This document shows positions 56,193 to 56,366 of a stretch of 64,000 nt of DNA, piece by piece. Source of the stretch: Chloroflexota bacterium. GTDB lineage: Bacteria; Chloroflexota; Dehalococcoidia; CAUJGQ01. The position numbers and the translations under genes are program-made. The notes under the pieces are model-generated. The model was given only the letters and a program-made list of their open reading frames with translations. It ran no database searches and was not told the origin of the DNA. The stretch spans positions 1 through 64,000 of the forward strand of contig CAUJGQ010000044.1 of NCBI GenBank assembly GCA_963170165.1, in the 5' to 3' direction. Numbering within the stretch: position 1 is the stretch's first letter; every line of letters starts with the position of its first letter.

Positions 56193-56366
56193 AAAAAAAA
56201 GCCCGTGCCCGGACGGCAACCGCTGGCTGCCCGCCGGACAACGGTCTCGCCCGCCGGAACAAACCGGCCGCCGGAACCGGGGCCACACGCCGCGGGGCGG
56301 CAACCCGTGCTGACGGCTCCGGCGCACCCCGCGGTCGTCGCGGGGACAGGGCTACTCCCCCTTGCG
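56193..56366 (-). ncRNA. Candidate yybP-ykoY (Mn2+) riboswitch with downstream terminator
   Basis: Minus strand: CAAGGGGGAGTAGC (56351-56365), P2-like CCCCGCG acgac CGCGGGG, CCGTCAGCACGG, GGCGAGACC (56243-56251), then GCCGTCCGGGCACGGGC-TTTTTTTT (T8 at 56193-56200). Confidence 0.8.

What the first reader, a model, noticed from the sequence alone, without database searches (positions are those of the whole stretch)
56193..56366. Unannotated yybP-ykoY-type manganese riboswitch controlling a CaCA-like exchanger
The minus strand between the micro-ORF and the exchanger (start 56157) carries the hallmark blocks in order: AAGGGGGAGTAGC, a strong P2 hairpin (CCCCGCG/CGCGGGG), CCGTCAGCACGG, GGCGAGACC, then a GC-rich segment ending in T8, with an SD (GGAG) and ATG about 35 nt later. 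The GGGGAGUAG...GUCAxCA...GC[A/G]AGACC pattern is established for the yybP-ykoY family, which senses Mn2+ and commonly controls cation exporters. The T8 run suggests control by transcription termination. It also predicts that this divergent CaCA protein exports Mn2+ (or Ca2+/Mn2+).
Basis: partly seen in the sequence, partly recalled or inferred. Interest (0 to 1): 0.82.

Follow-up and report, generated by a model that had tools for sequence, protein, structure and literature searches.

The report
Manganese riboswitch before a cation exchanger
Upstream of a gene for a calcium-type ion exchanger in an uncultured Dehalococcoidia bacterium lies an RNA switch of the known manganese-sensing yybP-ykoY type, one that the standard Rfam model misses, which suggests that the exchanger helps the cell to pump out manganese.

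Summary
In detail: every named block is at 56193-56366 (minus strand), and the block pattern is expected 0.003 times per simulated window.

The isolated aptamer folds into the complete four-way junction. A covariance model of 18 Dehalococcoidia leaders, excluding the window and E. coli, finds the window (45.1 bits, E 8e-11), E. coli mntP (59.7 bits) and alx (32.4 bits). Across 19 leaders, 33 of 36 pairs show two-sided changes. The Mn-contacting L3 adenosine is kept in all leaders read. The same genome has a second such leader before TerC, a classical target. Homologous exchangers carry the leader too, all within one clade. Downstream, a terminator reuses P1's 3' strand, as in relatives, implying Mn2+-ON transcriptional control.

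The ligand and Mn2+ export remain inferred. This is a new member of a known class; the CAX-type exchanger as its target is the less expected part.

The parts
56379..56384 (-). possible -10 hexamer (TACGGT) placing transcription start a few bases before P1; inferred by eye
   Evidence: sequence; same distance to P1 as TAGCGT in relatives L005, L007, L067, L069; the consensus scan did not flag it
56238..56365 (-). yybP-ykoY-type aptamer, whole four-way junction
   Evidence: R1 28.6 bits E 3e-5; R2, built without it, 45.1 bits E 8e-11; MFE fold
56359..56365 (-). P1 5' strand GCAAGGG
   Evidence: fold; pairs 56238-56244 with one G.G mismatch
56353..56358 (-). L1 5' strand GGAGUA, includes the invariant A of the cross-helix A-minor contact
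   Evidence: invariant in aligned leaders; role of A10 from PMC6754395
56349..56352 (-). P1.2 5' strand GCCC (pairs GGGC 56249-56252)
   Evidence: covaries: GCCC/GGGC here, GCUC/GAGC in L004, ACUG/CAGU in L005, AUCG/CGGU in L007
56327..56345 (-). P2 hairpin CCCCGCG-ACGAC-CGCGGGG
   Evidence: fold; helix 3
56314..56324 (-). P3 5' strand (pairs 56269-56279)
   Evidence: fold; helix 4, 96.7% of cells paired
56307..56314 (-). L3 5' strand GUCAGCAC; A56311 matches the Mn-contacting A41 (L. lactis) / A48 (X. oryzae)
   Evidence: alignment with L3 sequences given in PMC6754395
56280..56306 (-). P3.1 hairpin, longer than in most leaders (11 pairs)
   Evidence: fold; appears as insertion
56253..56268 (-). 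P4 hairpin GCCGG-UUUGUU-CCGGC
   Evidence: fold; helix 6
56238..56252 (-). P1.2 3' strand GGGC, L1 3' strand GAGA, P1 3' strand CCGUUGU
56199..56248 (-). terminator hairpin, -32 kcal/mol, whose 5' arm (GAG.CCGU.GUCCGG) overlaps L1 and P1 3' strands; mutually exclusive with P1
   Evidence: fold; same architecture in L069 and L004
56193..56200 (-). U8 tract of the terminator
56165..56168 (-). Shine-Dalgarno GGAG of the exchanger
   Evidence: sequence
54919..56157 (-). CaCA exchanger, 412 aa, CAX_Af-type
   Evidence: PF01699 E 7e-23; profile matches PDB 4kpp E 5e-139
54393..54833 (-). DUF202 protein, same direction downstream; possible operon member, not conserved next to the exchanger in relatives
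   Evidence: PF02656; neighbours of L004, L005, L007, L067-L069 differ

Best explanation
The leader is a yybP-ykoY-class manganese riboswitch controlling the CAX-type exchanger by transcription attenuation. When Mn2+ is scarce, the 3' strand of L1/P1 (GAGACCGUUG) is captured by the downstream sequence into a terminator hairpin followed by U8, and transcription stops before the exchanger gene. When Mn2+ is high, it binds between L1 and L3 (contact by A56311), stabilises docking and P1, the terminator cannot form and the exchanger is made. The exchanger then most likely exports Mn2+ (perhaps also Ca2+) in exchange for protons or Na+. Shown here: the aptamer structure and its conservation, homology to the E. 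coli mntP and alx leaders, overlap of terminator and P1, and a single clade of leader-bearing exchangers. Inferred: Mn2+ as ligand, ON direction, Mn2+ transport.
For: Exchanger homologues in relatives carry the leader. Model R1, from five other exchanger leaders, finds the window (28.6 bits, next best in 64 kb 12.4) and E. coli mntP (45.5 bits). R2, from 18 leaders without window or E. coli, finds the window at E 8e-11, mntP at E 3e-15 and alx at E 3e-7. Covariation score 0.651 against at most 0.111 for slid structures; 33 of 36 pairs with two-sided changes. RF00080 itself matches related leaders L033 (40.6 bits) and L069 (27.9 bits, E 4e-4). CA at the Mn-contact position of L3 in all leaders inspected, with the sequences UCA and ACA known from Mn2+-bound crystal structures (PMC6754395). 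Second leader before TerC in the same genome, TerC the commonest downstream gene in the class. Terminator includes the P1 3' strand, as in relatives. All leader-bearing exchangers lie in one supported clade (98/95).
Against: RF00080 gives no match at E<=10 for the window. P1 has a G.G mismatch and the terminator has a bulge and a mismatch. In GC-rich sequence such models gain score from base pairing alone: the antisense of a training sequence scores 27.5 bits with R1, so the 28.6 bits are not decisive by themselves. A7 and A8 were fitted to the structure, which favours it. No ligand or transport measurement exists.
Confidence: 0.88

Rival explanations
1. A yybP-ykoY-fold aptamer whose physiological ligand here is Ca2+ (or Ca2+ and Mn2+ together), matching a Ca2+/H+ exchanger.
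For: The downstream gene is a CAX_Af-type exchanger, and CAX proteins are primarily Ca2+ exporters (PMC4982074, abstract). A review states that the S. pneumoniae mgtA aptamer binds Ca2+ more tightly than Mn2+ but is activated more by Mn2+ (PMC9495176).
Against: L1 and L3 contact residues match Mn2+ riboswitches, and the sister leaders in the class precede TerC and UPF0016, which are manganese genes. The A41 N7 contact is described as Mn2+-specific (PMC6754395).
Confidence: 0.08
2. Only a constitutive terminator or attenuator remains: the aptamer is a degenerate relic that no longer binds metal, given its mismatched P1 and off-model score.
For: P1 mismatch, no RF00080 score, and one relative (L065) has lost the aptamer and kept a terminator remnant.
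Against: All core residues of L1 and L3 and all helices are intact, with compensatory changes specific to the window (P1.2 GCCC/GGGC).
Confidence: 0.04
3. Chance resemblance in GC-rich intergenic DNA.
For: 77% GC; fold z-score of the aptamer only -1.9.
Against: Block pattern 0.003 per simulated window, orthologous position in relatives, leave-out model E 8e-11.
Confidence: 0.005

Closest known systems
yybP-ykoY Mn2+ riboswitch (Rfam RF00080); E. coli mntP and alx leaders, L. lactis yoaB and X. oryzae crystal structures
   Same: Four-way junction with P1, P1.2, P2, P3/L3/P3.1, P4; L1 GGGGAGUA...GAGACC; L3 nYCAn with the Mn-contacting A; P1 strand shared with a terminator, as in the L. lactis transcriptional switch (PMC11087558).
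   Different: Five Gs and a G.G mismatch in P1; long P3.1; GC-rich helices; below any RF00080 score; controls a CAX-type exchanger rather than MntP, UPF0016, TerC or a P-type ATPase.
yrbG under yybP-ykoY in Vibrio vulnificus (RegPrecise prediction quoted in PMC13274385)
   Same: A CaCA-superfamily exchanger downstream of a yybP-ykoY riboswitch. A YrbG-type case also occurs here in a relative (L111, PF01699 E 1e-71).
   Different: YrbG is another branch of CaCA; the window's protein belongs to the CAX_Af branch.
S. pneumoniae mgtA Mn2+/Ca2+ ATPase riboswitch (Martin et al. 2019, read only through PMC9495176)
   Same: yybP-ykoY aptamer linked to a transporter with Ca2+ and Mn2+ substrates.
   Different: Different transporter family (P-type ATPase).
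CAX_Af, Archaeoglobus fulgidus exchanger (PDB 4kpp; name from own knowledge, structure of CAX_Af mentioned in PMC10227063)
   Same: Matches the exchanger profile over its whole length, E 5e-139.
   Different: No riboswitch known to control it; substrate tests concern Ca2+.

Membership tests
yybP-ykoY Mn2+ riboswitch class | Four-way junction P1/P1.2, P2, P3 with L3 and P3.1, P4 | tested here: met
   MFE of the isolated aptamer; covariation in 19 leaders
yybP-ykoY Mn2+ riboswitch class | L1 GGAGUA on the 5' side and [A/G]AGA on the 3' side, with the invariant A | tested here: met
   56353-56358 and 56245-56248
yybP-ykoY Mn2+ riboswitch class | Mn-contacting adenosine (A41 L. lactis, A48 X. oryzae) preceded by C in L3 | tested here: met
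   C56312-A56311, by alignment to the L3 sequences quoted in PMC6754395
yybP-ykoY Mn2+ riboswitch class | Homology to experimentally studied members | tested here: met
   R2, trained on Dehalococcoidia leaders only, finds the window, E. coli mntP and alx
yybP-ykoY Mn2+ riboswitch class | Expression platform mutually exclusive with P1 | tested here: met
   Terminator 5' arm contains L1/P1 3' strands; by energy model only
yybP-ykoY Mn2+ riboswitch class | Mn2+ binding and Mn2+-dependent expression | not testable with these tools
   needs in-line probing, transcription or reporter assays
Rfam RF00080 (the database model) | Bit score at or above the gathering score of 45 | tested here: not met
   No match at E<=10. 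Not a defining feature of the natural class: E. coli mntP scores 41.6 and alx is not reported
CaCA superfamily, CAX_Af branch | Two Na_Ca_ex repeats with the paired acidic motif | tested here: met
   PF01699, 2 stretches; LPE (E84) and SPE (E263) invariant; 4kpp
Mn2+ exporter | Mn2+ efflux activity | not testable with these tools
   inferred from the riboswitch only

The most novel reading that the evidence does not exclude
A clade of CAX-type CaCA exchangers in Dehalococcoidia is a further family of bacterial Mn2+ exporters, beside CDF, MntP, UPF0016 and P-type ATPases, expressed through a Mn2+ riboswitch that was acquired once in the ancestor of the clade and that Rfam's model cannot see.
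Probability: 0.55. Interest if true: 0.55.

Novelty: new member of a known kind. Interest (0 to 1): 0.42.

Why it matters
It assigns a metal to a transporter family annotated only as cation:H+ or sodium:calcium antiporter, and gives a direct test of whether bacterial CAX proteins export Mn2+. It also shows that RF00080 in Rfam 15 is blind to most yybP-ykoY leaders in a whole class: 0 of 198 genomes over its cut-off, against 43 of 396 genomes of the class with a model trained inside it, and it scores even E. coli mntP below its cut-off. Negative Rfam scans for this riboswitch should therefore not be trusted.

Tried and rejected
RF00080 on the window, the region and the whole genome: nothing. 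Weak Rfam hits over the leader (L4-Archaeoglobi, suhB, mir-666) are far below their cut-offs and rejected as chance. The whole-genome search with R1 did not list the window's own leader although direct cmsearch does: its first-look filter scores only a subset of candidates. A single-protein scan of genome contigs gave three distant exchangers without leader. Consensus promoter scan: no sigma-70 match at the expected place. Terminator folded from GUUGUCC alone seemed detached from the U tract; including GAGACC resolved this. The weak R1/R2 match at 40495-40605 (+) (12.4 and 18.2 bits) lacks GGGGAGUA and was rejected. Antisense matches of training sequences were left out of the covariation count by the E-value limit. 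No paper found linking yybP-ykoY to CAX exchangers, but the key 2015 papers (PMC4376352, PMC4703321) were not readable here, so absence of a report is not shown.

Full report
Observation. A pattern of the L1 blocks alone is expected about 0.003 times per window-sized sequence with the same dinucleotide make-up, and was seen 0 times in 300 when the L3 block is added. Folded alone, 56238-56365 adopts as its minimum-energy structure the whole four-way junction of the yybP-ykoY class: P1 with one G.G mismatch, the asymmetric L1, P1.2 (GCCC/GGGC), P2, P3 capped by L3 and a long P3.1, and P4.

RF00080 does not match, either at its cut-off or at E<=10. The Rfam 15 model's structure line leaves P1 and P1.2 unpaired and runs on into downstream sequence (alignments). 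It scores the E. coli mntP leader at 41.6 bits, below its own 45-bit cut-off, and does not report alx; both are known members of the class (own knowledge, Dambach et al. 2015; not readable here). Failure of that test therefore says little.

Relatives. The class is Dehalococcoidia: a relative's contig of 164,412 bases (G016:C65) has the same length as the contig of an exchanger annotated 'Dehalococcoidia bacterium' (P0087). Exchangers 57-61% identical to the window's are preceded by leaders with GGGGAGUAGC or GGGGAGUAAC, an L3 with CA, and GCGAGACC or GUGAGACC, followed by near-perfect terminators whose 5' arm is the P1 3' strand (L004, L005, L007, L067-L069). The G-to-A change in AGUAG/AGUAA is matched by C-to-U in GCGAGACC/GUGAGACC, a compensatory change in P1.2.

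Models. R1, built from five exchanger leaders without the window (covariation), scores the window 28.6 bits with the next best place in 64 kb at 12.4, and scores E. coli mntP 45.5 bits. Because the reverse complement of a training sequence reaches 27.5 bits, a second model was made. R2 comes from 18 leaders, again without window and E. coli. It scores the window 45.1 bits (E 8e-11), mntP 59.7 bits and alx 32.4 bits, the two E. coli matches lying just upstream of the annotated mntP and alx genes. Over 19 leaders 92% of cells pair, 33 of 36 pairs have two-sided changes, and the covariation score is 0.651 against 0.03-0.11 for slid structures and 0.19 for shuffles. This alignment was fitted to the structure and leans towards it.

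Ligand site. The L3 sequences reported for the Mn2+-bound crystal structures are UC-A41-AUUC (L. lactis) and AC-A48-UACU (X. oryzae), the A being the invariant Mn2+ contact (PMC6754395). The window has GUC-A56311-GCAC; the other leaders inspected have GCCA, GACA, ACCA, AACA or GUCA. The contact A and the C before it are kept in all.

Genes. The exchanger is a CaCA protein of the CAX_Af type. In the class, sampled leaders precede mostly TerC, then the CAX-type exchanger, and once each UPF0016 and a YrbG-type CaCA protein. The window's own genome has a second leader just upstream of its only TerC gene (found independently at E 3e-15 by R2, whose training set contained it). It has no UPF0016 gene. 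Exchangers with the leader all lie in one supported clade (98/95); its members without a detected leader are one at a contig edge (L059), one with a remnant terminator (L065) and one very long branch (L057). This suggests one acquisition with later loss. The genes beyond the exchanger differ among relatives, so the exchanger is the conserved target.

Mechanism. The window's terminator, GAG.CCGU.GUCCGG...CCGGGC.ACGG.CUU plus U tract (-32 kcal/mol), uses the L1 and P1 3' strands, so terminator and aptamer P1 cannot coexist. By analogy with L. lactis, where Mn2+ stabilises P1.1 and prevents the terminator (PMC11087558), this is a Mn2+-ON transcription switch. The ligand, the direction and the exporter role are inferences.

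Verdict. A genuine but off-model member of a known riboswitch class. A recent paper lists the main Mn efflux types as CDF, MntP, UPF0016 and P-type ATPase, and notes yrbG under yybP-ykoY in Vibrio vulnificus (PMC13274385). So control of a CaCA protein is not wholly new, while control of a CAX-type exchanger was not found in the papers searched.

Noticed in passing
L108, L110, L112, L118, L125, L128, L129 (relatives), first 70-95 codons after the leader: Many class leaders are followed first by a small Asp/Arg-rich ORF (such as MELFDLFERE...RRGIRGFFDRMFAGDEDEDEDEERDRR) with no Pfam match, then by TerC or, in L125 and L128, an MgtC-family protein. Possibly a Mn-binding small protein.
   Followed up: partly
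56497-56562 (-): A 21-residue hydrophobic micro-ORF (MYIGGGLLLLILIILLLVILF) with a good ribosome site, followed by a perfect hairpin GAGACCGCC...GGCGGTCTC; no Pfam match.
   Followed up: no
L111 (relative G265:C12:32144-32246): A yybP-ykoY-type leader precedes a YrbG-type CaCA exchanger, a second branch of the superfamily under the same kind of leader.
   Followed up: partly
L065 (relative G179:C13, upstream of 74609): An exchanger of the same clade has lost the aptamer but keeps a remnant of the terminator (GATCCTTGATGG...GGCATCAGGGGTCTTTTTT).
   Followed up: partly
G068:C161:7412-7513 and 8615-8718 (-): Two R2 matches about 1.2 kb apart on one contig of a relative, perhaps two leaders in tandem.
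   Followed up: no
Rfam RF00080, seen on L122 (E. coli K-12): The Rfam 15 'Manganese' model scores the E. coli mntP riboswitch below its own gathering score (41.6 against 45) and does not report alx.
   Followed up: yes
52577-54833 (-): DUF202 protein and a CitMHS/TrkA-C transporter follow the exchanger in the same direction; possible operon, not conserved in relatives.
   Followed up: partly
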